Shown here piece after piece: positions 26,012 to 46,513 of a stretch of 64,000 bases of DNA. This DNA is from Nitrospinia bacterium. GTDB taxonomy: Bacteria > Nitrospinota > Nitrospinia > Nitrospinales > JAJDAT01. A model generated the notes under the pieces. That model had not been told where the DNA came from. It was given only the letters and a program-made list of their open reading frames with translations, and made no database searches. The position numbers and the translations under genes were made by a program. The stretch's first letter is position 1; each line of letters begins with the position of its first letter. Where the stretch lies: contig JAJDAT010000025.1 in NCBI GenBank assembly GCA_029261715.1, positions 558,001 through 622,000 of the forward strand, given 5' to 3'.

Positions 26012-26107
26012 ACCTAGGTTCTTCCTCGCACTTTGTGCTCGTCCAGAATGACGGGGAGAAGGACGTTATTGGGAAAGCAATATTGTTTTGAAGAGAAGGA
26101 TCTGGGT
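26012..26107. repeat. REP-like arm A and partial arm B, right side of the GIY-YIG gene
   Basis: ACCTAGGTTCTTCC ... CCAGAATGACGG (26012-26056), then GAAGAGAAGGATCTGGG (26089-26106). Same layout as the array at 24.1-24.5 kb. Confidence 0.8.
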
Positions 26108-26179
26108 ATTAATTCAGTATTTTTCTGTGAAATTCTGTGGCTAAAAGCGCCTCTGTGGCCAATAAAAGGAGAACGAAAC

Positions 26180-32100: not shown

Positions 32101-35100
32101 TGAATATTTTGATCGTTCGCAAGGTTTCGTCCCCAGTGAAAACGTTTATCGACTTTCCGACGAAGAACTCCCTAGCGATTATTTTCCCTCTGAAGATGTC
32201 ATGAATTTTCATTACTCAATTTATCCTAAAGATCCTCCCGATTACCGATTGGAATTCGTTATCCCTTCTCGTCTTACGGTCGGCCCGACTTACCGTTTTA
32301 AGGTATTTAATGGGAGACAATTTAATTCTAACGATGAATTAACTGGTTGGAGCATGTCCATCTCTAATATGAGTTTTACCGCTAATGGCGGTTATGTGGC
32401 GGCGGAAGAGGAATTGAAACCGGAGGAGGACACCACTGGTCAGCTTTTCGATAACGAACTTTTCAACAACGAAACCTTTGTCGGTTTGGTCAATAACGAC
32501 GAGATCCGCACGCCTTCAACCGTCGATCCGGTTAGTACCGTCACCGGCAATATGTACCTTGACGAAACTGATATAGCCATCAAGGGACGCGGTCTCAATG
32601 TCGGATTCACCCGCACCTACAATTCCGGACAAATCGATCTTGGCGACGGCAAACCGTTCAGCAAAGGTTGGACCCATTCCTACAATATGAAATTGAGATC
32701 CAACGATTTTGGGCAACATCCGAATTATCCCGTCGAGTTGGCTTCGGAAAATGAAAACAATTTAACTTCCTCTATCACCTACACAAACGAACGTGGCGGC
32801 GAAGCGAATTATCTGGTCAACGATTTGGGGAGTTATGCAGTGACGCCGCCAAAAGGATTCTTTGACGACTTGCAATTGGATACGCCCAGCATGGGTTATC
32901 ACACGTTGACCTTTCGCAACGGTACCAAATACGTTTTTTACAGTGGCAATAATATGCGGTCGCCAGGGCAAACGGCGCGCCTAGACCGCATTGAAGATCC
33001 GTATGGCAATCAACTGAGTTTTCAATACGATGGTTCCGGCAATTTAACAGCGATAACCGACAACCTCAATATCGCCGGACGTACAGGACTCTCCTTAACG
33101 TATTCCGGCGACCGGTTGGCGTCCATTACGGATTGGACGGGGCGTGAATGGACCTATGACTACGACGCTCAGAGTCGATTGAGTTCCATAACTGATCCGC
33201 TTGGCAATATTAAAACTTACTCCTACGATGGCGATAGTAATTTTTTAAATGAAGAGGAATATCCGGCGGACCGCAACGGCGAGAAAGCGAAAACGAACTA
33301 TACCTATTACGAAAACGGCAAAACCTTCAACAATGCTAACGCGTTAGGGCAGGGCGAGACTATCGATTACGACCTGTATCGAAAATCTACTCGCGTTACC
33401 GACGCCGACGGCTTTGTGCGTACCTATCGCTACGACCAGAACGGCGCCTTGCTTCAGTTGGAGGAGCCCGACGGCGGTATTTTATTTTTTGACAATAGCG
33501 AAGACAGCCTGCGTTATCAAAAAACCGATGCCCTGGGGTTTGTCACCCAATATTCGTATCGATCCAGTGGCAACGCGGGAACTCAAGCGAGTGATAACTT
33601 TGGTCGAGTGAGTCGGGAAATAGATCCCCTGGGATTTTCGACCCAATTTGAATATGGATTGTTCGATCAACCTTCTCACGTTGTCAATAAGCGTGGTCAT
33701 GCCAGTGTTTTGACTTATTTTGAAACCACGGACTCAAGCCTGGGAGCCGTGGCGGGCAAACTGCAACGGGAAGAAATCCTTTTCGAAGATCCAAACGCTG
33801 AACCCGTTGAAACCAATAACGGCAATTATACCGATGACGATACGGTGTTGATGCTGCATTTTGACGAACTAAACGGAACGTTCGTCGATTCTAGCCCGTC
33901 CGAGCATGTTATTACTGCCGTAAATGGAGCCACTACCGTGAACGCTCCAGACAATCCACTTAATCCTGGTAGCAATGCAGGTTCTTTCGATGGTATTGAT
34001 GATGGCCTTACCATCCCTGATTCCGAAGATTGGGAGTTTGGAAACGGAGATTTTACGATTGAATTATGGTTCCGGTTAAATGAAACGTCTCCAGGATCTG
34101 GGGTTGTTAAAAATAGTGGAAGTTTTTTCTCGCAAGGTCCAAACGCTTCAGTAGGCTATTTTGATTTTGGGTATGACGGTCAAGGCAATACGATATCATT
34201 TTATGACCAACCGGGTAATACGTTTAGCCTTACCATAGGCGCCGTCTTTGCCCCTAATACTTGGTATCATATGGCTCTTGTTCGTGATGGTATTATTTTT
34301 AGATATTTTCTTGATGGAATCGAACAAGGAACTAAAATCAGTAACGCAACTTTACTGGATCATACTGGGCCAGTATCGATAGGAAAAAGAAGTTATCAAA
34401 CCAACTATAGTCAAATAAATGGTCAAATAGAAGAGTTTAGAGTTTCGAAAGGAGTCGCTAGATGGACGTCAGACTTTACGTCGCCCACTACGCCTTATAC
34501 AGCTCCGCCGCCGCCATCGGGAATCAACACGGTTTTGGCGGAATACACGTACACTCCCGGCGGTAATTTAGAAACCAAAACGGACTTTTACGATCCGGCA
34601 AATCCCAATAAAAAAAGGGTAACGACTTATACTTACGACGCCGACGATTTCAATCCGACACAAGTGACGGTTACAGGTTATCCGGAAGGGGAAACCGTTA
34701 CCGTCGACACCACATACGACGCTCTGGGTCGAAAACTAACGGAGAGGCTCAACCGGCGCAACTCTTATGCAGACGAGACTCTACTACAGTTAACGTCGAC
34801 TTTTGAATACGATGCACTGGGGCGCGTTATAGCCGTTACCGATACACTCGGCAATGTAGCGCGTACGGTTTACGATGCCAACGGTCAGGTAACTCAGGAG
34901 TCGGTGGATTACAAACAGACTGACGCCAGTTTTGTGACTCGTATTTTTAAGACTTACGAATATGATGTTGCCGAACGTCTCATCAAAGAAACGGATATCG
35001 ATGGCAACTCGACTCAATATGCTTATGACGCGCGTGGCAATGTAATCTCGGCAACCGACGCAAATGGCAACGTGACGCGATTTGAATACGACGCGATGAA

Positions 35101-37630
35101 CCGGCAAACGGTTGTTATCGACGCTAACGGAGCGCGCCGACAAACCGTGTACGATTTGAACGGTCGCGTAACGCAAACTGTCGACGGTAATGGAACCGCT
35201 ATTTCGTTTGAGTACGATGGAGTAGGGCAGACCACTAAAATAATTACCGCTTTAAATAATCAAACGCAAATGGAATATGACGGTAACGGTAACCTGACTA
35301 AAACTACAGACGCCGAGGGACGTATTACGACACATGAGTATGACGAATTAAACCGGCGTATTAAAACCACCGACGCCAACAATGGGATTACGGCTTTTAC
35401 TTACGATTTGCAGGGCAACCGCACTTCTTTGACAGACGCCGAAGGGCACACCACTTCATTTGTTTACGATGGTTTAGGCCGATTGACCGAGGTCAAAGAT
35501 CCACTGGAGGAAGACCCGGAAGATAAATCCACGGTGTTTACCTATGATGAAGCGGGTAATGTGTTGACCGCCAAAGACCGTAATGGTAACGAAGTTGGTT
35601 TTGCTTACGATACGTTGAACCGGTTATTTGCGACGGTTTTTGTCAACGATAACGCGCAGGAATTACGTACCTACGACAGTTTTGGGAATTTAAAGCAAGT
35701 CGCTAACGAAGACATTATTTATTCGTTCACTTACGATCAACAGAATCGATTGATTTCCAAAACCGACGAAAGGCTTGATCATAACGGAGCATCAACCAAT
35801 AAAATCCTAAGTTGGAGCTATGACAAAGTGGGGAACGTCGTTACCAAAACCGATTATCAAGGCAAAACGACTAACTACCAGTACAACGCCGCCAATCGAT
35901 TGATCGCGCAGAGTAATTCGGACCACGTACAAGTTTCTTATTATTATGACGAAGCGGGTCGATTGGTGAATCGTATTTTATCCAACGACGTGAAGAGTTT
36001 TTATCAATATGATGCAGACAATCGATTGACGTCATTGATCAACCAGGGTGTTGGCGGAGTTGAGATAAGTAGAACATTATACACCTACGACAAAGTGGGC
36101 AATATCAAAACTGTATCGGTAGGGGCGCAGGGGGCGGAACAGACCACGGTTTATACTTACGACAACTTAAATCGTTTGTTAGGAGTTGACGCGCCCAATA
36201 CGGCAAACGATCATACTTACGTCTACGATAAAGTAGGAAATCGATTAACTCACAACCAGGATGGCGTTGCTCATGCTTACGCCTACAATGTGAATAATCA
36301 ATTGATAGAAGTTCGGCAGGGCAGTATGGCGGGTCCCGTTGTTTATACATATACCTACGATTCTAATGGCAACCGGTTAACCAAGCGCAATGTCGACGAT
36401 ACGACTCTGCAAAGTTTTGTTTATGATCAGAAGAATCGGGTGACGGGGATGTCGGTTCCGGATAAGTCGTTTTATTTTAAGTACGATCCGAGCGATTACC
36501 GGATCAAAAACGACCCTTCGACAGGCTCAGGGCAGGTTAGTGCGGGAGGGACGCGAAATTACTATTTAGAAGGTGAGCATTTAGAAGCGATTTATGATCG
36601 TAACTTTCAATTACAGGACCAATATTTTCGTGGCGTGGTGGTGGACGAGGTAGTTCATGGACTCCATTACGATGCTGATGGCAACGAAAGCGGAACAACA
36701 TATCATCACGACCATTTACGGTCGGTCACTTCGACGGTTGGCTCGTTAGGGAGTACCTCATCAACGATGCAATACGGACCGTTTGGCGAGTTGATAACAG
36801 AAACCGGCAACGACAACGGCAACCGATTGCATTACACCGGACGTGAGTTGGACGATTCCGGGTTATACTACTACCGAGCCCGCTATTACGATCCAGAGGT
36901 TGGACGTTTTACGACGGAAGATCCCATTGGGTTTAAAGGTGGAATTAATAAGTATGCTTACGTTGGAAATAATCCAATTAACGGAAATGATCCGAGCGGT
37001 CAAGCGAGAGTTGAATTAATTGAACGACCTATAGATAATTCCCCAACTGGTAATCATGCTGTGATAGTTGTGACAGATCTGGATGGATCCAAAACTTTAT
37101 ATGAAGGTTTTCCCGAAGCACAATTAAATAATAATCAAACCCCAACTAATCTTTTTGGGGATTTGACTGCTGTGGTAAACCAAACAAATCCAAAGGATTT
37201 AGCTGGGCTGCCAAGTCAAGTTTTAGTGGATGACAATTTGCCCGGAAACGTTTATACGGGACAATTTAACGTTTATAACCAGCAAATCAATCAATCAAAT
37301 ATTAGTTACAACCCCTTAAGTACTAATAGCAATGCTTATGCATTTTCAGCTGTGGAACAAGTATTGGGCGTTAGACCTAATTCGCAAACTTTTTCTCCGG
37401 GAAGTACCCTTTCGTTATCAAACCAAATTCCCTTCAACAATGGTTTGCAATCTCCTCAATTCTCCAGTGGAGCTGAAGGTTTTTTTGATGGTGTTTCCAA
37501 TTTTTTTCAAGGTTTGTTAGGACTTAGTTCTAGTTCTTCTAGTTCAGGGGGAAATGGCGCTGGAGGAGGATTTGTTATTTATCCTAATAAGCCAAATAAT
37601 AATTTTATGGAATCTGTTTATTCTAAATAA
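26180..37630 (+). CDS. Giant secreted RHS-repeat mosaic protein with a variable C-terminal tip
   Basis: 3,816 aa from GTG 26180, which has AAAGGAG 8 nt upstream; the open frame back to 26033 is repeat sequence. Domains by residue: signal peptide 1-28; DUF7948-like domain about 74-389 (GKLPLRFEKNEGQTDSKVKF); SBBP propeller 389-844 (YSTYLGG, IAVDNSGNAYVTG); five HYR domains 845-1224; transglutaminase-like domain about 1236-1334 (RSQGIPARYAVG) lacking the usual nucleophilic Cys (GNDVDLATT); DUF6531-like start of the RHS part about 2113 (STVDPVSTVTGNMYLDETD); YD repeats to about 3450 with a LamG domain inserted at 2553-2771; RHS core 3461-3609 ending DPIGFKGG...NDPSG; tip 3610-3816. The tip (HAVIVVTDLDGSKTLYEGFP, YNPLSTNSNAYA) is not a family I can name. 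It ends in the tail [14 protein letters not shown] shared with the cassettes downstream. Probably a surface-exposed or delivered polymorphic effector. Confidence 0.85.
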   Translation: MFQVKRTLLWFNIIILTISLVLPQIVDAAPQEFRNTVWQDDKTLEGRNYLDPSPFGLKDDGESGGSENGQGSTAKHVPSATKVRIQNAYGKLPLRFEKNEGQTDSKVKFLSRGNGYSLFLTPTESVLTLTKPREGKEGYFDKISTGSEFHRKTKKIQNRLARCHPRTNGLCNNPEVKDLGNSLPLKKFRNTAWNNNEVEENQNNVTLNPKNVTVRLSNRDHNSQEEQTPSYETIAISMKVVGANPNAKVAGQEELPGKTNYLIGKDQSKWRTGVSNYKKVKYEEVYPGIDLVYYGNQRKLEYDFVVKPGVDLKVIALKFDGIDGMTLDDEGNLVLQTGNGEVIQQKPIIYQEVHGQRQPIEGKYSIQEDNRVAFLVSDYDKNKNLVIDPILQYSTYLGGTDSEFGRGIAVDNSGNIYVVGDTKSTGFPTISGAYQTNKTDSSFDVFVVKLNSTGSALVYSTYIGGNDQDRGYGIAIDNSGNAYITGLTVIDFPTTAGAFLENPLNNFAGFVAKLNPSGSDLIYSTYLGGTSGDNDARSIAVDDSGNAYVTGVTFASNFPTTSGGFQTTNNGSGDVFIIKLNSTGSGLIYSTLAGGVGEDRAFGIDLGTSGNAYVTGYTKSTDFPVTSGAYQTTFGNGPQDAFILRLNSDGSNLVYSTYVGGHADEVGTGIAVDNSENAYITGFTQGAYPITSGVFQSISAGPKESFVTKINSSGSSLIYSTYIGGINGDFARAIELDNLGNAYITGETWSYDSYPTTPGAFATAVPGVSSFLSKLNTDGSSLLYSTYVSGGGFVYGTGIAVDSLENAYIVGHTSSNSFPTTEGAFQESKAGSDDAIIYKVNFNQPIVTAPGNIILEATGPTTSVDLGIASAIDPQEGDLTPTSNMIGPFAVGIHTVTWSVTDSDGNIDSAPQIVTITDTTAPTVNPPEDITVFSASQTTLVTLGTATATDVVDGALTPTADNTGPFTIGVHTVTWSTIDSAGNIGTAYQTVIINAGYPPVVTPPLDVTVEATGPTSLVTLGTAVATDQEDGVLIPTVDNSGPFAIGVHTVTWSVTDSDGNTGSATQTVTITDSTIPTVIPPADVTLEATGPTTSVNIGLAVATDPIDGNLIPTADNLGPFAVGTHTITWTATDPSGNSGMATQTLTIIDTIPPIINPPTDILVVTMESAISVNLGTATATDIVDGTLTPIVDNIGPFAIGVYTITWSATDTNNNTGTATQTVTVSLPSDLGETSEIQFTSDSAQKLRDKANELGSAVKIYEYVRNNYEYQLYHGSISGSINSFLAKRGNDVDLATTLIAMLRSQGIPARYAVGNVTLKKEDLMNWLNVKNFDLAVSILRDQGIQGPGSIGPEVSADGNSVTFERIWVQALVSYEDYRGIGSDESLDCAGTFIPDPCLWVDLDPAFKLRKYHNQRIDIYGQVQFDYDRYFHAIRNNDIEYKDKNPLEIYKQEILEYLRIHHPGKTLEDVKDPGLIIKEELELLPASLPFETVGEVKTYDSTEEHDLDFSVSNPAGLKKWQKKLKFKLKFEAIDINLPWEILLSDASYQKLSLSFVSSLPGSQSVVARFNGIDAVSPYVINININGQPVVQDGAIFNLQLEMDGPPAIEAGGIDDVFTSENEGLIVGGYYHISTGGYSSNWSQVHRATEQLLTANDQYPILNDASDIPYVDENENKIIDPGELPLLDHDEAQEALTGGLLYVAGMQFWADFYEKIQELGAIDYVISPIRGFAGIVSSTNEVEYLDGTTFAIMPGGLLVDMSSYSNGDWRINEPEKIAGLTNDLQAHIGSSLEHEVWQQMTGYDAVSTVRGIQMALAQDLDNDGQFDARLLHLKKTATEDTFPAAAPHLGFTSQAPPNFERADRFVFSTRPSTWSWEPNPDESHIFLTFKSTIDSSDSDIRRLYVNYFSEAGDSVFPTVGIVPCFDYQEDLITSFSPGSTVTGNYCGGEDIGGVSREQTLIRLEEIYTDYTGGAPQFEYFDRSQGFVPSENVYRLSDEELPSDYFPSEDVMNFHYSIYPKDPPDYRLEFVIPSRLTVGPTYRFKVFNGRQFNSNDELTGWSMSISNMSFTANGGYVAAEEELKPEEDTTGQLFDNELFNNETFVGLVNNDEIRTPSTVDPVSTVTGNMYLDETDIAIKGRGLNVGFTRTYNSGQIDLGDGKPFSKGWTHSYNMKLRSNDFGQHPNYPVELASENENNLTSSITYTNERGGEANYLVNDLGSYAVTPPKGFFDDLQLDTPSMGYHTLTFRNGTKYVFYSGNNMRSPGQTARLDRIEDPYGNQLSFQYDGSGNLTAITDNLNIAGRTGLSLTYSGDRLASITDWTGREWTYDYDAQSRLSSITDPLGNIKTYSYDGDSNFLNEEEYPADRNGEKAKTNYTYYENGKTFNNANALGQGETIDYDLYRKSTRVTDADGFVRTYRYDQNGALLQLEEPDGGILFFDNSEDSLRYQKTDALGFVTQYSYRSSGNAGTQASDNFGRVSREIDPLGFSTQFEYGLFDQPSHVVNKRGHASVLTYFETTDSSLGAVAGKLQREEILFEDPNAEPVETNNGNYTDDDTVLMLHFDELNGTFVDSSPSEHVITAVNGATTVNAPDNPLNPGSNAGSFDGIDDGLTIPDSEDWEFGNGDFTIELWFRLNETSPGSGVVKNSGSFFSQGPNASVGYFDFGYDGQGNTISFYDQPGNTFSLTIGAVFAPNTWYHMALVRDGIIFRYFLDGIEQGTKISNATLLDHTGPVSIGKRSYQTNYSQINGQIEEFRVSKGVARWTSDFTSPTTPYTAPPPPSGINTVLAEYTYTPGGNLETKTDFYDPANPNKKRVTTYTYDADDFNPTQVTVTGYPEGETVTVDTTYDALGRKLTERLNRRNSYADETLLQLTSTFEYDALGRVIAVTDTLGNVARTVYDANGQVTQESVDYKQTDASFVTRIFKTYEYDVAERLIKETDIDGNSTQYAYDARGNVISATDANGNVTRFEYDAMNRQTVVIDANGARRQTVYDLNGRVTQTVDGNGTAISFEYDGVGQTTKIITALNNQTQMEYDGNGNLTKTTDAEGRITTHEYDELNRRIKTTDANNGITAFTYDLQGNRTSLTDAEGHTTSFVYDGLGRLTEVKDPLEEDPEDKSTVFTYDEAGNVLTAKDRNGNEVGFAYDTLNRLFATVFVNDNAQELRTYDSFGNLKQVANEDIIYSFTYDQQNRLISKTDERLDHNGASTNKILSWSYDKVGNVVTKTDYQGKTTNYQYNAANRLIAQSNSDHVQVSYYYDEAGRLVNRILSNDVKSFYQYDADNRLTSLINQGVGGVEISRTLYTYDKVGNIKTVSVGAQGAEQTTVYTYDNLNRLLGVDAPNTANDHTYVYDKVGNRLTHNQDGVAHAYAYNVNNQLIEVRQGSMAGPVVYTYTYDSNGNRLTKRNVDDTTLQSFVYDQKNRVTGMSVPDKSFYFKYDPSDYRIKNDPSTGSGQVSAGGTRNYYLEGEHLEAIYDRNFQLQDQYFRGVVVDEVVHGLHYDADGNESGTTYHHDHLRSVTSTVGSLGSTSSTMQYGPFGELITETGNDNGNRLHYTGRELDDSGLYYYRARYYDPEVGRFTTEDPIGFKGGINKYAYVGNNPINGNDPSGQARVELIERPIDNSPTGNHAVIVVTDLDGSKTLYEGFPEAQLNNNQTPTNLFGDLTAVVNQTNPKDLAGLPSQVLVDDNLPGNVYTGQFNVYNQQINQSNISYNPLSTNSNAYAFSAVEQVLGVRPNSQTFSPGSTLSLSNQIPFNNGLQSPQFSSGAEGFFDGVSNFFQGLLGLSSSSSSSGGNGAGGGFVIYPNKPNNNFMESVYSK
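26325..26361. repeat. REP-like copy embedded in frame in the giant gene
   Basis: ACCTAGATCCTTCG ... CAAGGATGACGG lies inside the coding sequence and is read as YLDPSPFGLKDDG, between the signal peptide and the first domain. Confidence 0.8.
26667..26719. repeat. Second in-frame REP-like copy, inverted
   Basis: GTCATCCTAGAACG ... GAAGGATCTAGGT, read as CHPRTNGLCNNPEVKDLG. It sits in an insertion that splits the DUF7948-like domain. With the copy at 26325 it forms an inverted pair. Confidence 0.8.
36511..36540. repeat. In-frame CCCTTCGACAGG-type palindromic repeat in the RHS part
   Basis: CCCTTCGACAGG followed by CTCAGGGCAGG (36514-36536) is a different, widely distributed palindromic repeat. 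It is translated as DPSTGSGQ within the last YD repeat, where related RHS proteins run directly from the YD repeat into NYYLEGEHL. Confidence 0.7.
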
Positions 37631-37658
37631 ATTAAAAGAATTTTGTTTATAGAAAAAA

Positions 37659-38033
37659 ATGATCTTTTCTGAGCCAATAATTAAATTGAAAAAAAATAAT
37701 TTAAGCAAAATGTTTTTGTTTGCTTGGATGGTGTTTTGCCTTTTTTTTTCGGGTTGTATTAAGGTAGATAGGAATAAAGTAATTCAAAAAGTGAGACAAG
37801 ATTTACCTATTGGATCGCCATTTGAAAAAATCGAAACTTATTTATCTAATAAAAAACATATGAATCGATTCAGATATCACCCCGATAAAGATATGTTTGA
37901 GTCTTTCATATATCCACTTGACTATGGCTATTCTTTATATGCTCCCTCTGCGATTTTTGAATTCAAATTAGATCGTAATAAGAATCTTAAGAATATTATT
38001 TATCGAATAAAACCTTTCCCAGGTTGGCGATGA
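37659..38033 (+). CDS. Small lipoprotein, candidate immunity protein of the giant RHS tip
   Basis: 124 aa. A hydrophobic segment followed by a lipobox (FLFAWMVFCLFFSGC) predicts a lipoprotein; ATG 37710 is an alternative start just before it. The mature part is basic (VRQDLPIGSPFEKIETYLSNKK, YRIKPFPGWR) and has no named domain. It starts 28 nt after the giant gene and overlaps the next gene by 4 nt (ATGA). Position directly behind the active tip suggests immunity, with an envelope location matching a tip acting outside the cytoplasm. Inferred from position only. Confidence 0.5.
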   Translation: MIFSEPIIKLKKNNLSKMFLFAWMVFCLFFSGCIKVDRNKVIQKVRQDLPIGSPFEKIETYLSNKKHMNRFRYHPDKDMFESFIYPLDYGYSLYAPSAIFEFKLDRNKNLKNIIYRIKPFPGWR

Positions 38034-38599
38034 CTCAGACTTTCACAAAACTCTTCGGAATTATTACACTAAAAGAGTGGACGGTTGGCCCAAAGCACCA
38101 AATAGCCAATCGTTTCTTTTGGTTATTCTTAATCGCTGGCTTTTCGAATTTTAACTTTTTTGGAGTTTTAGGAGAATTCCCGACCGACAATGTTTTTGTT
38201 GGATTTCTTTTACTGGGTGCCCCCGCTATATTATTTGCTGTGGCTGGAATCGCATTCTTGAATTTAAAAATAGCCGCTTTAATAGGTATTTTTTTATTAT
38301 TTCCAAATTTGATTTGGGATGCACAGAATATAAAAGAAATTTTGAGTCTTATTTTAAACTTTGGCTCCATGATACACTTTTTGTTCGCCATTTTTCTTTT
38401 ACCTTCAATATTCATTACCCCAGTTGCGTTCTTGATGTCGTTTTCGATCTTATTAGCAAAAGATTTGTCCTATTCGATGAATTTAGAATTTTGTTTTAAT
38501 AAGCACTTAATTGCTGGTTTGATTCCACCTCTATTGACTTTAGTTTTTCTTTATAAAATTCTTTCCCAAGGTTTTCCAGGAACCCTGTTTTATGAGTAA
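38030..38599 (+). CDS. Polytopic membrane protein, partner of the lipoprotein upstream
   Basis: 189 aa from ATG 38030, coupled by an ATGA overlap to the lipoprotein. About five hydrophobic segments are visible (FFWLFLIAGFSNFNFFGVLG, VGFLLLGAPAILFAVAGIAF, IAALIGIFLLFPNLIW, FLFAIFLLPSIFITPVAFLM, LIAGLIPPLLTLVFLY). No known family is recognised. Likely part of the same protective or accessory pair behind the active tip. Confidence 0.55.
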   Translation: MTQTFTKLFGIITLKEWTVGPKHQIANRFFWLFLIAGFSNFNFFGVLGEFPTDNVFVGFLLLGAPAILFAVAGIAFLNLKIAALIGIFLLFPNLIWDAQNIKEILSLILNFGSMIHFLFAIFLLPSIFITPVAFLMSFSILLAKDLSYSMNLEFCFNKHLIAGLIPPLLTLVFLYKILSQGFPGTLFYE

Positions 38600-38671
38600 A
38601 AGAAGTACTAATTAAAGATTTCTGTCAATTCAAACGATTACTTCCCTAATATTTCTTCTAAGTGAAGAATT

Positions 38672-38728
38672 ATGATTTATCTCAATAAACCTAATCTAAA
38701 CATGATGCAGAGGGTTTATGAAAAATAA
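38672..38728 (+). pseudogene. Remnant of an RHS tip C-terminal tail
   Basis: Reads MIYLNKPNLNMMQRVYEK then TAA, matching the shared tail ([17 protein letters not shown]) of the cassettes. No matching RHS core or tip precedes it, so it is what is left of a lost cassette. Confidence 0.7.
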
Positions 38729-38804
38729 AATTATTTCTCCTCTACTTGATTTATTTCCGTACCTAAAAATTAAGCCAAAAGCCACTTTTGAGTAAGTGGG
38801 AAAA

Positions 38805-38905
38805 TTAATTTCAAAACCGCGTCTGGGTCAAAATTTTAGATCGTCGTTTTTCTTGAAAAAATTGATTTGTAACTGATTGGAAGCTTTGAGGTAATTTGAT
38901 TTTAA
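38805..38905 (+). repeat. Cassette leader repeat L1
   Basis: Non-coding block starting ATTAATTTCAAAACCGCG and ending GATTGGAAGCTTTGAGG then TAATTTGATTTTAA. It precedes orphan tip 2. Copies L2-L4 occur at the same place before the other tips. A partial extra start (TTAAGCCAAAAGCC) is at 38770-38784. Confidence 0.8.
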
Positions 38906-38930
38906 TGGTCGGCGTCCTTCTGACTGCATA

Positions 38931-39719
38931 TATTACTACCGAGCCCGCTATTACGATCCCGAAGTAGGGCGGTTCCTCACGGAAGACCCTTTAGGTTTTG
39001 AAGCTGGCGTTAACTTTTACGCTTATGTGAGCAACAATCCTATTATTTCCAATGATCCAAGTGGATTGATTGAAAATAATCCGGGTCGAAGTCTTTATCA
39101 GCTCACAGAAAGCAAAGCTAAAGCAACAATTCAAACTTCTTTCGGAAAGCTTTACCAAAATGCCACTACTGGAGAATGGTGGAGTAAAGACCAATCTAAG
39201 CACGCTGCATTTAAAGTGCATAAACAAACTTCTAAGGGATTTGAAGTTATTAGGGAAGCAAATAAATACGGCGATTTTATTGATAAACATAAAAGCAATA
39301 TAGGGAAGTTTATTCCTAATAGTCAAACTTGGGGGTTTAATGCTAATCCAAAATTTTCAGGTGGCGGGATTGGGAAAGCATTACAGGGAGCTGCGAAAGG
39401 AGCGGCAAAAACTGGGCTCAAAGGAATTCCAATAGTTGGCGTTGTTGTTGACTTACTTACTCCAAATGAGGCGGGAGCGGGCTCAACAACTTTTCCTGAA
39501 ATTCCAAGTGGAGCCGAATATGCTTTTAGTTTATTAAGAAATAATCCTCATTCTATCGTTCGTGCCTTGGCAGCCAAGCATTTGCAACGTAATTTTTCTG
39601 GCTTCTATTCTGCTATTAATATTGGTTCTTTTGGAAATTTAACAGGAGCTAGAGGAGGATTTGTTATTTACCCAAATAAGATTAACAATAATATGATGAA
39701 GCGAGTTTATAGTAAATGA
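38931..39719 (+). CDS. Orphan RHS tip cassette 2 (predicted nuclease-type toxin tip, no own start)
   Basis: In frame from the core anchor [21 protein letters not shown] to the tail ending NNNMMKRVYSK; open back to 38895 but with no ATG, first possible start GTG 39027. After NDPSG the tip reads WWSKDQSKHAAFKVHK then ANKYGDFIDKHKSNIGKFIP. I recognise this as a toxin-tip type found in many RHS and contact-dependent effectors, probably an RNase; the exact Ntox number is not certain. Residues after about 135 (IPSGAEYAFSLLRNNPH, AAKHLQRNFSGF) are shared with cassettes 3 and 4. It needs recombination into the main gene for delivery. The HEAT-like gene downstream is its likely immunity. Confidence 0.65.
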   Translation, partial: YYYRARYYDPEVGRFLTEDPLGFEAGVNFYAYVSNNPIISNDPSGLIENNPGRSLYQLTESKAKATIQTSFGKLYQNATTGEWWSKDQSKHAAFKVHKQTSKGFEVIREANKYGDFIDKHKSNIGKFIPNSQTWGFNANPKFSGGGIGKALQGAAKGAAKTGLKGIPIVGVVVDLLTPNEAGAGSTTFPEIPSGAEYAFSLLRNNPHSIVRALAAKHLQRNFSGFYSAINIGSFGNLTGARGGFVIYPNKINNNMMKRVYSK

Positions 39720-39870
39720 GGTTTTATTGAGAGTGATCGATGATAATTATAGAGTACCCAATTACGCATATTCTCACCACCGTATAGAGATTAAAAAATT
39801 TTCTTGTTTAAAAATGTTATCTAATTTTGCATAGAACTTATCTTTTTATTTTGACATTGGAATAAAATGA

Positions 39871-40278
39871 ATGATCAATTCTGCTGATGAATATAAACGG
39901 CTGAGAGAGAGCGATAAAGAAGAAGAGTGCGATAGAGTTGTTTATGAAGAGGCTCCTATTGAAGTATGGAAAGATATAATTAATCGGTTTCCTGACGCAA
40001 GAGAATGGGTTGCTCATAATAAAACTGTACCATTGGAAATTTTATCCATCCTTTCCAAAGATGATAATCCTGAGGTACGATATATGGTGGCCATGAAAAG
40101 AAAGTTGTCTAAGGAATTATTTGATTTGCTCAGTAAAGATAAAGATGAATCTGTCAGGATGAGGATAGCTTGTAATGCTAAAACACCTCGCGAAATTCTT
40201 GAAAAGATGAAAGAAGATGAAGTTATTGAAATTGTTAATTGGGTTACTGAGCGACTAGAAAACTTCGATTATAAATAG
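39871..40278 (+). CDS. HEAT-like repeat protein, probable immunity protein of tip 2
   Basis: 135 aa, soluble, with three alpha-alpha repeats (EWVAHNKTVPLEILSILSKD, RYMVAMKRKLSKELFDLLSK, RMRIACNAKTPREILEKMKE). Proteins with this RESDKEEE...VWKDIINRFPDAREWVAHNKT pattern are frequent directly behind polymorphic toxin tips, and I know of no other role. Its gene is 150 bp after cassette 2 and has its own ATG. It should work in the cytoplasm, matching a nuclease tip. Confidence 0.7.
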   Translation: MINSADEYKRLRESDKEEECDRVVYEEAPIEVWKDIINRFPDAREWVAHNKTVPLEILSILSKDDNPEVRYMVAMKRKLSKELFDLLSKDKDESVRMRIACNAKTPREILEKMKEDEVIEIVNWVTERLENFDYK

Positions 40279-40340
40279 TTGTATCCTTCCTTTTTAATTT
40301 GAAAGATTAAGCCGAAAATCTTTTCTAATTCTATAAAAAA

Positions 40341-40471
40341 ATTAATTCCAAAACCCGCATTGGGGTATTTTTACCTAGATCCTTCGCTTCGCTCGAGGAT
40401 GACAGGTATTGAGTTTTATTGGGAAAATTGGTTTGTAACCGATTGGAAGCATTAGGATAATTTGATTTTAA
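40341..40471 (+). repeat. Cassette leader repeat L2, interrupted by a REP-like copy
   Basis: Starts ATTAATTCCAAAACCCGCAT then TGGGGT, ends GATTGGAAGCATTAGGA then TAATTTGATTTTAA. Between the two ends, where L1 and L3 have an AAAATTTTAGAT segment, it has a REP-like copy (ACCTAGATCCTTCG ... CGAGGATGACA, 40373-40414). Confidence 0.8.
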
Positions 40472-40545
40472 GGTATGACGCTCGGCCTTCGAGAGCCTCA
40501 GGCGGACACTTTTTTGAAATCTGCTTAAAGGAATGAGCCTCCGTA

Positions 40546-41382
40546 TACTACTACCGAGCACGCTATTACGATCCAGAGGTTGGAAGGTTTTTAACCGAAG
40601 ATCCACTTGGTTTCGCTGCTGGAATAAATTTTTATGCTTATGTTAGTAACAACCCAATTAATGCTAGCGATCCCACTGGGTTACAAGAATTTGAATTTTT
40701 AGACAATGTTGCAAAGCAGGGAAGAGTAAACCTTGAAAACATTGTCCAGTCAGCACAGCAACCTGCAAAGGGTGATGGTTTATTAACTAATGCGGGAAGG
40801 TCTCTTCAGAAAAAAGCTGGTCGTGGTGGATCAGCATTTCCAAATGTTTCAGGAAACGACGCAAAAAATCGAGCTGGTCAAAATATACTGAATGAGATAA
40901 TTAGAGATCCAAATTCAGTTGTTAGAAATAAAGGTGGTGGAGTTACAGAAGTTTTTGATTCTAACGGTAGAGGGTTTGCGGTAAAAGCCGGCGCTTTTGA
41001 TGGATTTCGAGAACTACCAAAGAGTTTCGACTTATCCAAAACAATTTTAAAATTAACAGGTAGAGTTTCTTTAGGATTGACTGGCGGAATAGTTGGTTTG
41101 GGCGTGACTGTATTGGATGGAATACTAGGAGCGGCCGAAGCTGGAACAGGTTCTGATCTGCAAATTCCGCAGGGAGCCGACTTTGCGTTTGATTTGTTAA
41201 AGAATAATCCTCATCAAAGAGTTCGAGCTCTTGCCTCAAGGCATTTGCAACGTAATTTCCCTGACTTTTTTACTGGTATTCAGATTGGTGCATTTGGAAA
41301 TGTCGCACAAGCTAATGGAGGATTTGTATTATATCCCAATAAGATTAACAATAATATGATGCAGAGGGTTTATTCAAAATAG
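40546..41382 (+). CDS. Orphan RHS tip cassette 3 (no start codon upstream of 41077)
   Basis: Open frame from [21 protein letters not shown] to the stop after [15 protein letters not shown] at 40534-40536 closes it upstream. No ATG, GTG or TTG occurs until TTG 41077, so it cannot be translated as a toxin by itself. After ASDPTG the tip reads GRSLQKKAGRGGSAFPN ... [19 protein letters not shown], like the GRALQKH...GRGARF...FIGF nuclease-type tips known from many RHS proteins. A hydrophobic glycine-rich stretch ([20 protein letters not shown]) and the shared tail follow. Nearly the same tip as cassette 4, about 15% different in the first half and almost identical after. Confidence 0.65.
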   Translation, partial: YYYRARYYDPEVGRFLTEDPLGFAAGINFYAYVSNNPINASDPTGLQEFEFLDNVAKQGRVNLENIVQSAQQPAKGDGLLTNAGRSLQKKAGRGGSAFPNVSGNDAKNRAGQNILNEIIRDPNSVVRNKGGGVTEVFDSNGRGFAVKAGAFDGFRELPKSFDLSKTILKLTGRVSLGLTGGIVGLGVTVLDGILGAAEAGTGSDLQIPQGADFAFDLLKNNPHQRVRALASRHLQRNFPDFFTGIQIGAFGNVAQANGGFVLYPNKINNNMMQRVYSK

Positions 41383-41461
41383 TTTTAAATATTTTTTGTT
41401 CTTTGGGATTCTTACGTTTTAGTGAGTTTGCTTACCTAAATTTTTCGGAAAAAATGAGATA

Positions 41462-41884
41462 GTGAATACTTTTAATTTGGAAAGAGTTGAAAGAAAGAAA
41501 GGAAAAGGTCAAACCGGCTGTCAATATTTTGAATATATTATAAATGGCAAGCCTCTTTTAAATTTTTTTGAGGGAATTGTTGAGATTGGAGTGCTTGGTA
41601 GTTTTGGAGAAAAAAATGATAATGACGCAGCCCTTCAATTGTTAAAAATGAAGCCATCGGAATTAGACACGGATAGGGTTCCGTTATATATCTGTCCAGA
41701 ATGTGGTGACCTTGGATGTGGAGCTGTTACCGTAAAAGTATTAATAAAAGAGAATTGTTTTACTTGGTCCGACTTTGGATATGAAAATAACAACGAGGAG
41801 GGACTATTAGAATCCTATAATATTGGTCCTTTTTATTTTGATAAGGATGAATACCAACTTATATTGAATAAATTTCTAACCTAA
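41462..41884 (+). CDS. Probable immunity protein of tip 3
   Basis: 140 aa, GTG start at 41462, 79 bp after cassette 3. It contains a zinc-ribbon-like pair YICPECGDLGCGAVTVKV and then WSDFGYENNNEE. I recall similar small proteins behind RHS and CDI tips, but no named family. Soluble and acidic, consistent with binding a cytoplasmic nuclease tip. It is unrelated to the gene behind the closely similar cassette 4. Confidence 0.55.
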   Translation: MNTFNLERVERKKGKGQTGCQYFEYIINGKPLLNFFEGIVEIGVLGSFGEKNDNDAALQLLKMKPSELDTDRVPLYICPECGDLGCGAVTVKVLIKENCFTWSDFGYENNNEEGLLESYNIGPFYFDKDEYQLILNKFLT

Positions 41885-41909
41885 AACCATGACTGGATCG
41901 GTAGAAAAA

Positions 41910-42010
41910 CTAAGCCAAAAACCGCATTGGGGTTAAAATTTTAGATTGGCGCTTTTATTAGGGAAATTGGTTTGTAACTGATTGGTAGCTTTGGGGTAAT
42001 TTGATTTTAA
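41910..42010 (+). repeat. Cassette leader repeat L3
   Basis: AAGCCAAAAACCGCATTGGG ... AAAATTTTAGATTGG ... GGGAAATTGGTTTGTAAC ... TAATTTGATTTTAA. Without a REP-like insert, like L1. Confidence 0.8.
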
Positions 42011-42038
42011 CTTACGGCGCTCTTCTGCCTCCGTAAAT

Positions 42039-42875
42039 TACTACAGAGCACGCTATTACGATCCAGAGGTTGGTAGGTTCCTAACTGAGGATCCCATAGG
42101 TTTTGATGCTGGAATTAATTTTTATGCATACGTGAGTAATAACCCTATCAACGCTAGCGATCCGACTGGGTTGCAGGAATTTGAGTTTTTAGACAGCGTT
42201 GCAAAACAAGGAAAAATAAACCTTGAAAACGTCATTCAATCAGCGCAAAAACCTGCAAAAGGGGATGGATTATTGACAGAAGCAGGGAGGTCTCTCCAGA
42301 AAAAATCAGCAAATCGCGGTAGCTCAGCATTTCCCAATCTATCAGGAAACGACGCAAAAAATAAGGCTGGTCAAAATATACTGAATGAAATTATTAGAGA
42401 TCCCAATGCGGTTGTTAGAAATAAAGGTGGCGGAATTACGGAAGTTTTTGATTCTAACGGCAGAGGGTTTGCGGTCAAAGGTGGAGTTTTTAATGGATTT
42501 CGAGAATTACCTGAGAGTTTTGATTTATCCAAACAAATTTTAAAATTAACAGGTAGAGTTTCTTTGGGATTGACTGGCGGTATAGTTGGTTTGGGCGTGA
42601 CTGTATTGGATGGAATACTAGGAGCGGCCGAAGCCGGAACAGGTTCTGATTTGCAAATTCCGCAAGGGGCCGACTTTGCGTTTGATTTGTTAAAGAATAA
42701 TCCTCATCAAAGAGTTCGAGCTCTGGCCTCAAGGCATTTGCAACGTAATTTCCCTGACTTTTTTACTGGTATTCAGATTGGGGCATTTGGAAATGTCGCA
42801 CAAGCTAACGGAGGATTTGTAATATATCCTAATAAGATTAACAATAATATGATGCAGAGAGTTTATTCAAAGTAA
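42039..42875 (+). CDS. Orphan RHS tip cassette 4
   Basis: Anchor [22 protein letters not shown], tip [18 protein letters not shown] ... [19 protein letters not shown], hydrophobic stretch and shared tail [11 protein letters not shown]. The first possible start is GTG 42132, inside the anchor, so a free product is doubtful. It has one extra residue and about 20 substitutions relative to cassette 3 in the tip and is almost identical from the hydrophobic stretch to the stop. Probably a nuclease-type tip. The gene 42888-43430 begins 12 nt after its stop. Confidence 0.65.
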
Positions 42876-42887
42876 AGTGGAAGTAAT

Positions 42888-43430
42888 ATGTTAAACGGCT
42901 CAAATATAGAAGAAAAGTTCTGGAATAAATTCAAAGAGATGGTCCTAGAGGACGATGATATAGATTTATTTGAGATTTGGATTTTCTATCCTTTACTTAA
43001 TGATCTCGAACGAATTCTTAATATATTTCAAAATGAAAACGTTCCCATATTCGATTTTGAGATTGATGGTTATCCTATAGATGAGAATAATTCTTCATTT
43101 GGAATTAAAGAAGTACAAAAATTTTTAAAGGCTGGTCAAGAAGGTTCTTATTTAGATTTCAAGTGCAAAATTGTTTCACACTACCATTGTTCTATTCATT
43201 TTGCGTTTTATAAAAAAGAGCAGAAAATGATAATTGAAATAGTTTTTGCTGGACGTGAAAATTTTCAAAGAAGTTTTTCAGAAGAAGAACATAAACGCAC
43301 CTTGAGTCGCTATATTGATTTCGCGAATAAAATCCGAGGAAATAATAGTGAAATAAAATGTATGTTTTTAAGTGAAACAACAAGCTCTCCAGAAGAAATG
43401 ATAGATAGCGAAAATGCTCTTGTTTGGTGA
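42888..43430 (+). CDS. Candidate immunity protein of tip 4
   Basis: 180 aa, soluble, acidic and aromatic-rich (DIDLFEIWIFYPLLNDLERIL, YLDFKCKIVSHYHCSIHFAF). It starts 12 nt after cassette 4. Not a family I recognise; assigned only from position. It has no visible similarity to the gene behind cassette 3 despite the near-identical tips. Confidence 0.5.
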   Translation: MLNGSNIEEKFWNKFKEMVLEDDDIDLFEIWIFYPLLNDLERILNIFQNENVPIFDFEIDGYPIDENNSSFGIKEVQKFLKAGQEGSYLDFKCKIVSHYHCSIHFAFYKKEQKMIIEIVFAGRENFQRSFSEEEHKRTLSRYIDFANKIRGNNSEIKCMFLSETTSSPEEMIDSENALVW

Positions 43431-43520
43431 TGGCCAATTTTTTCTATAGGTCACATTTTTTCTTAAAATAATATTATCTCCCTCCTGGATTAATCTTCAT
43501 AGGTTTACTGACAGTCAAAA

Positions 43521-44345
43521 ATGCTTATTGACCATACAGGCATGACCATAAAAAAATCTAAAAGTCCTATTAATTATAAGACTGAAGGAGGTGAAGGTTA
43601 TGACATATGGGATAGATTTGTAACGCTTGATGGAGCAAATGTATTTCATATTGGGAATATTTGCGAAACATGTGAATTTTTTTTCGAACGATTGCAAAGC
43701 CCACCACCTCAAAAAAAACTTCAACAAGTAGTAGGATCTCTAAAAGAAGGCGTAAATAATTTAGGATCTGAAATTCTTGATCCTATTGGACAAATTTTAC
43801 CTAACGGAGATTATGAAATATTGCTTAAAGAGATTCATCCAAAATTAATTGAGCTTTCAGGAAAAGAAGATTACTTTTTTGAAGAACAAATGCGCACATG
43901 GGATCCTAGGGAATTCGATGAAATTGATGAAATGCCATGGAATCCTAAAACCTCTTACTACAGAGCAAGCACATTAGAATTAGAGAATGAAGAATGTTTG
44001 TTTGAATTCGTGATTCCTTTTTACGAAAATTCCCATTTAGACGACGATACTCTCTTGGAGTATTCAAGAGTTCTATCAGACGGGAATAAACCTACTGCTT
44101 TGGCACTTTCATTTTTGGATATTAAAAGCCCAATCCAATGGGAGGAAGACTTCAAACCTGAGTATAAAGTTCATTGGTGCTTAGCTCATTATTTAATTGA
44201 CGGTCATCATAAGGTTCACGCAGCGTTTCAAACTGGTAGACCTCTAACTTTAATTTCTTTTTTGAATAAGAGAGGAGGCACTGCTTCGGAAGATGGGATT
44301 ACTCAAGTGATAAAACGGTTGAAAAATTCTAATCAGGTTTCATAA
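43521..44345 (+). CDS. Unknown soluble protein in the tip array
   Basis: 274 aa. An N-terminal FHIGNICETCEFFFERL has a CxxC pair, and a later HYLIDGHHKVHAAFQTGRP is His-rich. ICETC...FFFER occurs in uncharacterised proteins of several phyla. It lies between cassette 4 with its candidate immunity gene and broken cassette 5, 90 bp downstream of 43430. It may be an orphan immunity protein left from a cassette whose tip was lost, or an unrelated cargo gene. Confidence 0.5.
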   Translation: MLIDHTGMTIKKSKSPINYKTEGGEGYDIWDRFVTLDGANVFHIGNICETCEFFFERLQSPPPQKKLQQVVGSLKEGVNNLGSEILDPIGQILPNGDYEILLKEIHPKLIELSGKEDYFFEEQMRTWDPREFDEIDEMPWNPKTSYYRASTLELENEECLFEFVIPFYENSHLDDDTLLEYSRVLSDGNKPTALALSFLDIKSPIQWEEDFKPEYKVHWCLAHYLIDGHHKVHAAFQTGRPLTLISFLNKRGGTASEDGITQVIKRLKNSNQVS

Positions 44346-44389
44346 TTTTTGCTTTAACTCTACACGTTGTCTAAAAAATTGATAAAGGT

Positions 44390-44507
44390 TAAGCCAAAAA
44401 CCGTATTGGGGTAGATCCTTCGCTGCGCTCGAGGATGACATGACTTGAGTTTTATTGGGGGAATTGGTTTATAACTGATTGGAAGCATTAGGATAATTTG
44501 ATTTTAA
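44390..44507 (+). repeat. Cassette leader repeat L4, with REP-like insert
   Basis: AAGCCAAAAACCGTATTGGG, then a REP-like core GATCCTTCGCTGCGCTCGAG ... GATGACA (44414-44440), then TTTATTGGGGGAATTGG ... TAATTTGATTTTAA. From 44508 to about 44613 it matches 40472-40577 base for base as far as I can read. Confidence 0.8.
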
Positions 44508-44581
44508 GGTATGACGCTCGGCCTTCGAGAGCCTCAGGCGGACACTTTTTTGAAATCTGCTTAAAGGAATGAGCCTCCGTA

Positions 44582-44638
44582 TACTACTACCGAGCACGCT
44601 ATTACGATCCAGACGTAGTTTCTATATTAATGCTTTAA
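44582..44638 (+). pseudogene. Broken tip cassette 5: RHS anchor only
   Basis: Reads [18 protein letters not shown] then stop. The anchor is cut after DPD, and the following bases are already the end of higA on the other strand (stop at 44622-44624). The rest of the tip has been replaced by the toxin-antitoxin pair. Confidence 0.75.
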
Positions 44639-44918
44639 CTTTAATTACAGAAACAGAACGATGGTCACGGATACTATGCCAAAGATCCCAATCTCTTTGG
44701 AGGTTTAACCAAAACTCTGGACCCGTTTCGAAAGCTTCTCCCAATGATAATGCTGAATCTGGAGAGACTCCCCGTTTTTTATTTATGATTTCATTGAGTC
44801 TTGCATAAGGCCAGTTAAGATGTTTGGCCAAATCCATTTGGGATAGCTGCATAGGTTCCAAAAATTCTTTCAAAAGCATTTCACCTGGATGAGTCGGTGG
44901 CCTTTTCTTAGGTAACAT
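44622..44918 (-). CDS. higA: HigA-type antitoxin (XRE helix-turn-helix)
   Basis: 98 aa. PTHPGEMLLKEFLEPMQLSQ, then AKHLNWPYARLNEIINKKRG, is the typical HigA/VapI opening with the HTH, and LSLGEAFETGPEFWLNLQ follows. It binds the toxin and represses the operon. It sits 8 nt downstream of higB (toxin-first order, as usual for higBA). Its last codons run into the broken RHS anchor. Confidence 0.9.
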   Translation of the reverse strand: MLPKKRPPTHPGEMLLKEFLEPMQLSQMDLAKHLNWPYARLNEIINKKRGVSPDSALSLGEAFETGPEFWLNLQRDWDLWHSIRDHRSVSVIKVKALI

Positions 44919-44926
44919 AAATTCTC

Positions 44927-45217
44927 CTAATGGTAATCTACAATATCGACGTCTAAAGCGTTATTTTCTTCCCAACGGAAAACAATCCGCCATTGATTAT
45001 TGATCCTTAAACTCCAAAAAGTTTCTAAATCGCCTCTTAATTTTTCAAGGCGATTGCTTGGAGGTTTTCTAAGCGTATTTATTGATGTGGTCGCATTAAT
45101 TTGATCAAATAAACGTCTCGTTTTATTTTGGATTGCTACCGGGAGTTTTCTAGCGCTTTTGCTGTTAATGCCATCGTAAATATCTTGGGCAGTATTAGAT
45201 TTAAAATTTTTAATCAC
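44927..45217 (-). CDS. higB: HigB-type RelE-family toxin
   Basis: 96 aa. The ending WSLRINNQWRIVFRWEENNALDVDIVDYH is the RelE/HigB ribosome-dependent mRNA interferase signature, with LEKLRGDLETF upstream. Inhibits translation until neutralised by HigA. First gene of the operon; promoter-operator just upstream. Confidence 0.9.
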   Translation of the reverse strand: MIKNFKSNTAQDIYDGINSKSARKLPVAIQNKTRRLFDQINATTSINTLRKPPSNRLEKLRGDLETFWSLRINNQWRIVFRWEENNALDVDIVDYH

Positions 45218-45231
45218 GATTCAATATAGCA

Positions 45232-45250
45232 TATATCGATTGTCGATATA
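45232..45250 (-). promoter_or_regulatory. Operator of higBA
   Basis: TATATCGA-TTG-TCGATATA, a perfect 8-bp inverted repeat with 3-nt spacer, 15 bp upstream of higB. It overlaps TATA-rich -10-like sequence on the minus strand. A likely HigA autorepression site. Confidence 0.6.
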
Positions 45251-45303
45251 ATTAAAAACCATAAATAGCAATTTAAATCTATGGTTACGATTCTAACAGT
45301 AAT

Positions 45304-45372
45304 CACACGGGACGCGAGTTGGACGATTCCGGGTTATACTACTACCGAGCCCGCTATTACGATCTAGTTTGA
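45304..45372 (+). pseudogene. Broken tip cassette 6: longer RHS core anchor
   Basis: [22 protein letters not shown] then TGA. It matches the main gene (bases about 36837-36895) over nearly 60 bp, including the RELDDSGL part that the other cassettes lack. No tip follows; a parDE remnant comes next. Confidence 0.75.
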
Positions 45373-45411
45373 AGAATAATAAATGTGATTTTGAAATAGG
45401 AGTGGTTAACT

Positions 45412-45974: not shown

Positions 45975-45996
45975 AAATTATTCCTATTTCATTTTA

Positions 45997-46013
45997 ATCA
46001 TACTTTATCATAC
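45997..46013 (-). promoter_or_regulatory. Direct repeats, probable ParD operator
   Basis: ATCATAC at 45997 and again at 46007, i.e. one DNA turn apart, just upstream of parD. Reads as GTATGAT twice on the minus strand and may also serve as -10. Confidence 0.45.
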
Positions 46014-46020
46014 TAATTAG

Positions 46021-46430: not shown

Positions 46431-46456
46431 ATCTGGAAATAGTTACGTATTTTCCA

Positions 46457-46484: not shown

Positions 46485-46513
46485 TAGGCCTGATTGGTGT
46501 GGAAGCTAACTAA

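What the first reader, a model, noticed from the sequence alone, without database searches (positions are those of the whole stretch)
38805..44507. A roughly 100-bp non-coding leader repeated before four tip cassettes
L1 38805-38905, L2 40341-40471, L3 41910-42010 and L4 44390-44507 share CCAAAA.CCGCATTGGGGT, GGTTTGTAACTGATTGG and TAATTTGATTTTAA in the same order and position, 25-75 bp before the core anchor. It is not part of the RHS coding sequence and does not occur before the active gene's core. It could be the fossil of an ancestral unit boundary, a promoter or terminator for the preceding immunity gene, or a recombination site.
Basis: seen in the sequence. Interest (0 to 1): 0.72.

Follow-up and report, generated by a model that had tools for sequence, protein, structure and literature searches.

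The report
Conserved spacer at RHS tip joints
Between the stacked spare toxin-tip units behind a large bacterial RHS (contact-toxin-like) gene, the same short non-coding stretch recurs four times; it is probably the inherited seam left each time a new tip displaced an old one, and its 46-base heart is conserved better than the coding DNA beside it for a reason not yet known.

Summary
Four related non-coding copies lie between successive units of a displaced RHS tip array. Each sits after the preceding unit's genes and 25-75 bp before the next core fragment. None precedes the active gene's core, and no copy was found elsewhere in the 5.3-Mb genome or in 76 other genomes of the phylum. Copies 2 and 4 also carry two extra stretches of dispersed-repeat-like sequence.

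What persists is a 46-bp block (87-96% identical), flanked by diverged sequence (48-72%, apart from the near-identical L2/L4 pair). Third codon positions of the adjacent core fragments are 35-53% identical, so the block is better conserved than neutral drift of old joints would give. The core anchor after the leader ([10 protein letters not shown]) is also unusually uniform in codon use. The displaced tips have no start codon at the joint and look silent.

Best reading: an inherited unit joint of an array built by C-terminal displacement, the process Jackson et al. (2009) described, with a small conserved element inside. RNA structure, an intrinsic terminator, a decayed coding frame and a mobile repeat were tested and not supported. 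A promoter or a recombination arm stays open. Similarly placed repeats in a relative are a different, dispersed terminator element. This is a modest new variant of a known kind.

The parts
38801..38930 (+). Leader copy L1 (46-bp block 38860-38905); the related sequence may extend upstream to about 38765
40345..40545 (+). Leader copy L2 (block 40426-40471), with two extra stretches
41911..42035 (+). Leader copy L3 (block 41965-42010), without the extra stretches
44393..44581 (+). Leader copy L4 (block 44462-44507), with the same two extra stretches as L2
40376..40405 (.). Extra stretch 1 in L2 (TAGATCCTTCGC...CGAGGATGACAGG); the same at about 44412-44439 in L4; where L1/L3 have about 20 bp of other sequence
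   Evidence: alignment; similar short matches elsewhere in the window
40485..40535 (.). Extra stretch 2 in L2 (GGCCTTCGAGAGCCTCAGGCGGACAC...); the same at about 44520-44571 in L4
   Evidence: alignment; matches on four other contigs
36869..36901 (+). Core anchor [11 protein letters not shown] of the active RHS gene (no leader before it)
38934..39719 (+). Displaced tip 1: core fragment plus C-terminal region, no start codon at the joint (first in-frame ATG/GTG/TTG is GTG 39027)
   Evidence: TIGR03696 E=3e-17; start-codon check
40549..41382 (+). Displaced tip 2, no ATG/GTG/TTG in frame until 41077
42039..42875 (+). Displaced tip 3; 92% aa identical to tip 2 over the aligned fragment, dN/dS about 0.08
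44582..44616 (+). Truncated core anchor after L4 (fossil joint)
   Evidence: (D9: 40376-40580 and 44412-44616, 96%)
26033..37630 (+). Active RHS gene carrying the attached tip
   Evidence: RHS_repeat and RHS core domains
37659..38599 (+). Two ORFs after the active tip (37659-38033, 38024-38599), candidate immunity genes
   Evidence: position only; no Pfam or NCBIfam match
39871..40278 (+). ORF after tip 1, candidate immunity gene; only weak HEAT/LRV-like matches below cut-off
41462..41884 (+). ORF after tip 2, candidate immunity gene, no significant similarity to the other candidates
42888..44345 (+). Two ORFs after tip 3 (42888-43430, 43521-44345), candidate immunity genes
38658..38727 (+). 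Decayed remnant of the shared tip tail ([20 protein letters not shown]) just before L1: trace of a lost unit
   Evidence: D8

Best explanation
The leader is the inherited joint of a C-terminal displacement array, and it contains a small conserved element. Shown: the order is active RHS gene - candidate immunity ORFs - L1 - core fragment/tip 1 - ORF - L2 - tip 2 - ORF - L3 - tip 3 - ORFs - L4 - truncated core; the leader and the start of the core fragment meet at the same codons ([10 protein letters not shown]) in all four; none lies before the active core. Inferred: recombination inside the short anchor, by an excised circle (the published Jackson model) or by duplication followed by replacement of unit interiors, repeatedly put a new tip and its immunity gene onto the active gene and pushed the old core fragment downstream with the same non-coding joint in front of it. 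The tips therefore read as silent stored cassettes. Because the 46-bp block is conserved beyond its flanks and beyond core third positions, part of the joint probably has, or recently had, a function. My first choice is a cis-acting transcription signal for the start-less tip/immunity unit downstream, my second a short homology arm; neither is shown.
For: Four joints, four copies, none before the active core and none elsewhere in the genome. A fixed leader/anchor boundary in all copies, with no in-frame ATG/GTG/TTG between the last stop and the anchor in any of the three tips. L2 and L4 are 96% identical through leader plus anchor, and the match stops about 35 bp into the core, so leader and anchor travel as one piece (D9). 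Anchor codons are identical in 47 of 60 synonymous comparisons against 67 of 163 in the rest of the core fragment, as expected if recombination passes through the anchor. Block identity is 87-96% against 35-53% for core third positions (nominal p from 3e-4 to 2e-8) and 48-72% for leader flanks outside the L2/L4 pair (nominal p 1e-4 to 6e-3; the block was picked after seeing the alignment). Tip 2/tip 3 dN/dS about 0.08: the silent tips are not drifting freely. Published precedent: Jackson et al. 2009 (PMC2935791) describe displaced tip arrays, mostly without start sites in their Serratia example, and propose circular intermediates; Koskiniemi et al. 2014 (PMC3967940) show an orphan tip recombining onto the main gene.
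Against: Relatedness does not run evenly along a unit: L2 and L4 are near-identical but tips 1 and 3 are not, while tips 2 and 3 are close but L3 and L4 are not. A single whole-unit circle per insertion is therefore too simple; further conversion or interior swapping is needed. Core fragments here are diverged from the active core (72-75% nt identity, third positions 43-55%), unlike the near-identical fragments reported by Jackson et al. No relative carries the leader, so constraint rests on four copies in one genome. The promoter-like match is not better than random pieces of the window.
Confidence: 0.6

Rival explanations
1. The 46-bp block is a promoter that keeps each displaced unit's immunity gene transcribed while its toxin tip stays untranslated for want of a start codon.
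For: TTGTAA-17-GRTAAT recurs at the same place in the four blocks (TTATAA in L4), the best aligned promoter-like pair in them; two listed hits fall in the blocks of L2 and L4. The tips lack a start at the joint but the ORFs behind them are open.
Against: 22-68% of random window pieces of the same length score as well; in L1 and L3 the second hexamer is GGTAAT and fails the scan's rule. Whole-block conservation, spacer included, is more than a promoter needs. In Salmonella the ancestral strain was inferred not to express the orphan immunity gene in the laboratory (PMC3967940).
Confidence: 0.25
2. The block is a 3' homology arm (or a recombinase site) and the core anchor the 5' arm, so that unit interiors are swapped between the two.
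For: Both arms are uniform while the interior is variable; leader, tail and core give different groupings of the units, as interior swapping would produce.
Against: The shared runs in the block are short for RecA-type recombination; outside the L2/L4 pair the stretch between block and anchor is only 48-72% identical, so it was not homogenised; the small inverted repeat in the block is what chance gives (30% of shuffles); no hairpin like an integron attC. A linked recombinase was not searched for systematically.
Confidence: 0.2
3. Neutral fossil: one chance joint was copied by tandem duplication and the apparent conservation only reflects recent copying or gene conversion.
For: L2 and L4 do look recently copied (90-96%); tails of tips 2 and 3 are also recently shared (third positions 90%).
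Against: L1-L3 and L1-L2 are old by their flanks and by their core third positions, yet the block stays at 93% and 87%. Conversion would have to stop at both ends of the block.
Confidence: 0.3
4. Transcription terminator or 3' end signal of the preceding immunity gene.
For: Position after the immunity ORF; in relative G002 an 84-bp repeat with a clear intrinsic terminator sits at the same kind of joint (L088 7507-7590 and 9308-9391).
Against: No hairpin plus T run on the + strand in any leader copy; folding energies are no better than shuffles (z 0.6 to 1.1). The G002 repeat is unrelated in sequence and is a dispersed element with 15 matches in that genome, mostly not at RHS joints.
Confidence: 0.1
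5. Decayed RHS or other coding sequence, or a dispersed repeat.
For: One forward frame gives similar peptides in the four copies (NWFVTDWK..NLIL-like).
Against: That frame is broken by stops, and the substitutions in the block show no codon periodicity (read from the four block sequences). The leader is absent from the other RHS genes and the rest of the genome, from phages and plasmids, and has no Rfam match.
Confidence: 0.04

Closest known systems
Displaced ('dissociated') Rhs tip arrays, C-terminal displacement model (Jackson et al. 2009, PMC2935791)
   Same: Full-length RHS gene followed by start-less fragments made of a core piece and a C-terminal tip; displacement by recombination in the core explains why joints exist only downstream.
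   Different: Here all core fragments begin at the same codons and are diverged from the active core, and a conserved locus-specific non-coding element precedes each. The passages retrieved from that paper do not mention such an element; the whole paper was not read.
Vibrio cholerae T6SS effector-immunity displacement arrays (Kirchberger et al. 2017, PMC5361080)
   Same: Old effector-immunity units displaced downstream; [quoted passage not shown]
   Different: Different effector type; that conserved region was not compared in sequence here.
Silent mafB-CT cassettes of Neisseria (PMC4287609)
   Same: Start-less C-terminal cassettes, each followed by at least one immunity gene, downstream of the full gene.
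   Different: Not homologous; the passages read describe no conserved leader.
Integron cassette arrays (attC)
   Same: New units enter at one end and push older ones down, with a repeated joint between units.
   Different: The leader does not fold into a stable hairpin, and an integrase was not tested for. An analogy only.

Membership tests
Displaced Rhs tip array | Full-length RHS gene immediately upstream | tested here: met
   RHS_repeat and Rhs_assc_core in the 26033-37630 gene
Displaced Rhs tip array | Downstream fragments with RHS core piece plus tip | tested here: met
   TIGR03696 positions 32-76 in tips 1-3, E 3e-17 to 5e-18
Displaced Rhs tip array | Fragments lack a proper translation start | tested here: met
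   no ATG/GTG/TTG between last stop and anchor; first candidates are 31 to 176 codons inside
Displaced Rhs tip array | Tips of one locus are non-homologous | tested here: inconclusive
   tip 1 and active tip differ, but tips 2 and 3 are 92% identical and a tail is shared
Displaced Rhs tip array | Core fragments near-identical to the attached core and of varying length | tested here: not met
   72-75% nt identity to the active core, third positions 43-55%; all fragments start at the same codons. So filed as a variant, not a typical member
Displaced Rhs tip array | Functional toxin and cognate immunity pair in each unit | not testable with these tools
   tips and ORFs have no toxin or immunity family match
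Intrinsic transcription terminator | G+C-rich hairpin followed by a T run | tested here: not met
   none on the + strand in any leader copy; no excess fold stability
Sigma-70 promoter | -35 and -10 hexamers scoring above background | tested here: inconclusive
   aligned TTGTAA-17-GRTAAT, but not above random window pieces
Integron attC / structured recombination site | Conserved folded single strand | tested here: not met
   z-scores +0.6 to +1.1 (four copies on the + strand, two on the - strand)
Integron attC / structured recombination site | Linked recombinase | not tested
   no systematic integrase search was made
Dispersed repeat | Copies at unrelated loci | tested here: not met
   only four copies in 5.3 Mb; matches with up to 3 mismatches outside the array are about as frequent as the reversed-pattern control
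Known structured RNA | Rfam match | tested here: not met
   no match up to E=1 in window 36000-47000

The most novel reading that the evidence does not exclude
The 46-bp block together with the anchor is a dedicated, sequence-specific joint through which RHS tip units are swapped or stored, so that RHS arrays of some lineages behave as an organised cassette system and not as passive debris.
Probability: 0.1. Interest if true: 0.7.

Novelty: new variant of a known kind. Interest (0 to 1): 0.35.

Why it matters
How displaced toxin-tip arrays are built and whether the stored units stay useful (immunity expressed, tips recoverable) is largely inferred. A joint with a short element conserved beyond neutral drift gives a concrete target: it can be tested for transcription starts and for recombination breakpoints. 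If it is a promoter, it would explain how orphan immunity genes are kept expressed without expressing the toxins; if it is a recombination arm, it would show how units are exchanged.

Tried and rejected
RNA structure (no better than shuffles) and Rfam (none). Intrinsic terminator (none on the leader strand). Promoter scoring (ordinary). Leader elsewhere in the genome (no). Leader at the other RHS genes of the genome (no). Leader in the phylum: 64 genomes of the order gave two 15-17 bit matches (G011, G063), and 77 genomes of the phylum gave none outside this genome at E<=0.001; over 40 genomes the tool scores only the best candidates with stricter filters, so weak relatives could be missed. 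Direct search of 27 loci around relatives' RHS cores found no leader. A 19-base pattern in public genomes and viral contigs gave 5 and 2 loci; the model scores there were at most 16 bits, read as chance. Tip 3 gave no relative in the public genome collection; the shared tip tail is confined to this locus apart from one weak match. Phages and plasmids: none. Relatives: G002 looked at first like an independent case of native 3' trailers (so my notebook entry), but its 84-bp terminator repeat is dispersed with 15 matches; the G007 flanking repeats are also dispersed (50 matches); arrays of G072, G076 and a second G002 array show no separate repeated joint, apart from one diverged copy of the dispersed element in the second G002 array. 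These relatives therefore show that joints differ between lineages, not that the leader is general. Reading the leader as a 3' trailer of the preceding unit was also considered: L2/L4 versus tips 1/3 do not group together, so linkage to the downstream anchor is better supported.
Full report
Observation. A 25-base piece, AATTGGTTTGTAACTGATTGGAAGC, with up to three mismatches is found exactly four times in the window against none in 100 shuffles. A model built from the four copies finds only them in the window and in four other RHS loci of the genome. BLAST of the whole genome with L2 or L3 finds only the array, the RHS core, and short dispersed-repeat pieces carried by L2. Of the three motifs listed, TAATTTGATTTTAA is exact in all copies, the middle motif has at most one mismatch, and the first is clearly diverged in L1.

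Anatomy. The active RHS gene (26033-37630) is followed by candidate immunity ORFs, then L1, tip 1 and an ORF, L2, tip 2 and an ORF, L3, tip 3 and two ORFs, and L4 with only about 35 bp of core behind it. A decayed piece of the shared tip tail (38658-38727) lies just before L1. The tips carry the end of the Rhs-associated core domain (TIGR03696) and then regions with no family match. No ATG, GTG or TTG lies in frame between the last stop and the core anchor; the first candidates are 31 codons inside tips 1 and 3 and 176 codons inside tip 2. The displaced tips therefore look silent. That the ORFs behind them are immunity genes is inferred from position only.

Conservation profile. In the alignment of leader plus core a 46-bp block (L1 38860-38905, L2 40426-40471, L3 41965-42010, L4 44462-44507) is 87-96% identical in all pairs. 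Outside the L2/L4 pair, the sequence before it is 49-70% identical and the 25 bp after it 48-72%. The L2/L4 pair is 96% identical over 205 ungapped bases from leader into anchor, and stops about 35 bp into the core (D9). L2 and L4 also share two stretches that L1 and L3 lack; parts of them recur elsewhere in the window and on four other contigs. Third codon positions of the core fragments past the anchor are only 35-53% identical between units, significantly below the block (nominal p 3e-4 to 2e-8). The block was chosen after seeing the alignment, so the comparison with the flanks (p 1e-4 to 6e-3) is weaker than the comparison with the core. The first ten codons of the core ([10 protein letters not shown]) use the same codon in 47 of 60 comparisons against 67 of 163 further on.

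Mosaic history. Tips 2 and 3 are 92% identical in protein with dN/dS about 0.08, and their tails agree at 90% of third positions, while tip 1 agrees with them at 67%. Leaders group differently (L2 with L4). Leader, core and tail therefore do not share one history, which points to recombination inside units and not only insertion of whole units.

What it is not. It has no fold beyond chance on either strand tried, no Rfam match, and no intrinsic terminator on its strand. The best promoter-like pair, TTGTAA-17-GRTAAT, sits at the same place in the four blocks, but 22-68% of random pieces of the window score as well. The small inverted repeat in the block is what shuffles give. The forward frame with similar peptides is interrupted by stops, and the eight variable positions of the block fall on all three codon positions (read from the sequences printed).

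Relatives. No other genome of the phylum (77 searched, including this one) gave a leader match at E<=0.001; the order-level search gave two very weak matches judged chance. The search tool scores only the best candidates in large searches, so absence is not absolute, but the RHS loci of relatives were also searched directly without result. In relative G002 an 84-bp repeat with an intrinsic terminator stands at the same kind of joint, but it is a dispersed element with 15 matches in that genome. In G007 the repeats that flank an orphan unit are dispersed as well. Other arrays (G072, G076, a second G002 array) have core fragments close behind the preceding ORF, mostly without a separate repeated joint. 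Joints therefore differ between lineages and the leader is, as far as could be searched, private to this locus.

Interpretation. Jackson et al. (PMC2935791) explain displaced tips by recombination of circular intermediates with the core of the active gene. That model predicts a joint in front of every displaced core fragment and none in front of the active core, which is what is seen. It does not by itself explain the conserved 46-bp block, nor the different groupings of leader, core and tail; conversion or interior swapping between the anchor and the leader would explain the groupings. I commit to an inherited displacement joint that contains a small functional or recently functional element. 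A cis-acting transcription signal for the downstream unit is my first guess and a homology arm my second; both are inference.

Limits. Four copies in one genome carry the argument for constraint. Immunity and toxin functions were not tested.

Noticed in passing
window 44622-45217 (-) and 45687-45974 (-): A HigBA-like toxin-antitoxin pair (HigB-like toxin E=2e-20; HTH_3 match just below its cut-off) directly follows the truncated core after L4, and a ParD-like antitoxin lies further on; a second core fragment between them (45302-45366) also breaks off right after YYYRARYYD, and both breaks are followed by TAGTTT.
   Followed up: partly
window 37560-37629, 39649-39718, 41312-41381, 42805-42874: Active and displaced tips share a C-terminal tail ([17 protein letters not shown]), so the variable part of the tips is enclosed between a conserved core and a conserved tail; the tail was not found elsewhere in the phylum apart from one weak match.
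   Followed up: partly
window 41462-41884 versus 42888-44345: Tips 2 and 3 are 92% identical in protein but the ORFs behind them show no similarity to each other, unexpected if each is the cognate immunity gene of nearly the same toxin.
   Followed up: no
L088 7507-7590 and 9308-9391 (genome G002): An approximately 86-bp element with an intrinsic terminator, 15 matches in that genome; several lie just after an ORF, and some directly before RHS core fragments or IS-like ORFs.
   Followed up: partly
L029 4572-4796 and 7725-7949 (own genome, about C25:630.6 and 633.7 kb): A 225-bp direct repeat (83%) near another RHS gene of the same genome, not identified.
   Followed up: no
window 26033-37630: The active RHS ORF is very large (3865 aa) and includes two sets of tandem repeats in its first half (units of about 195 bp and 231 bp).
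   Followed up: no
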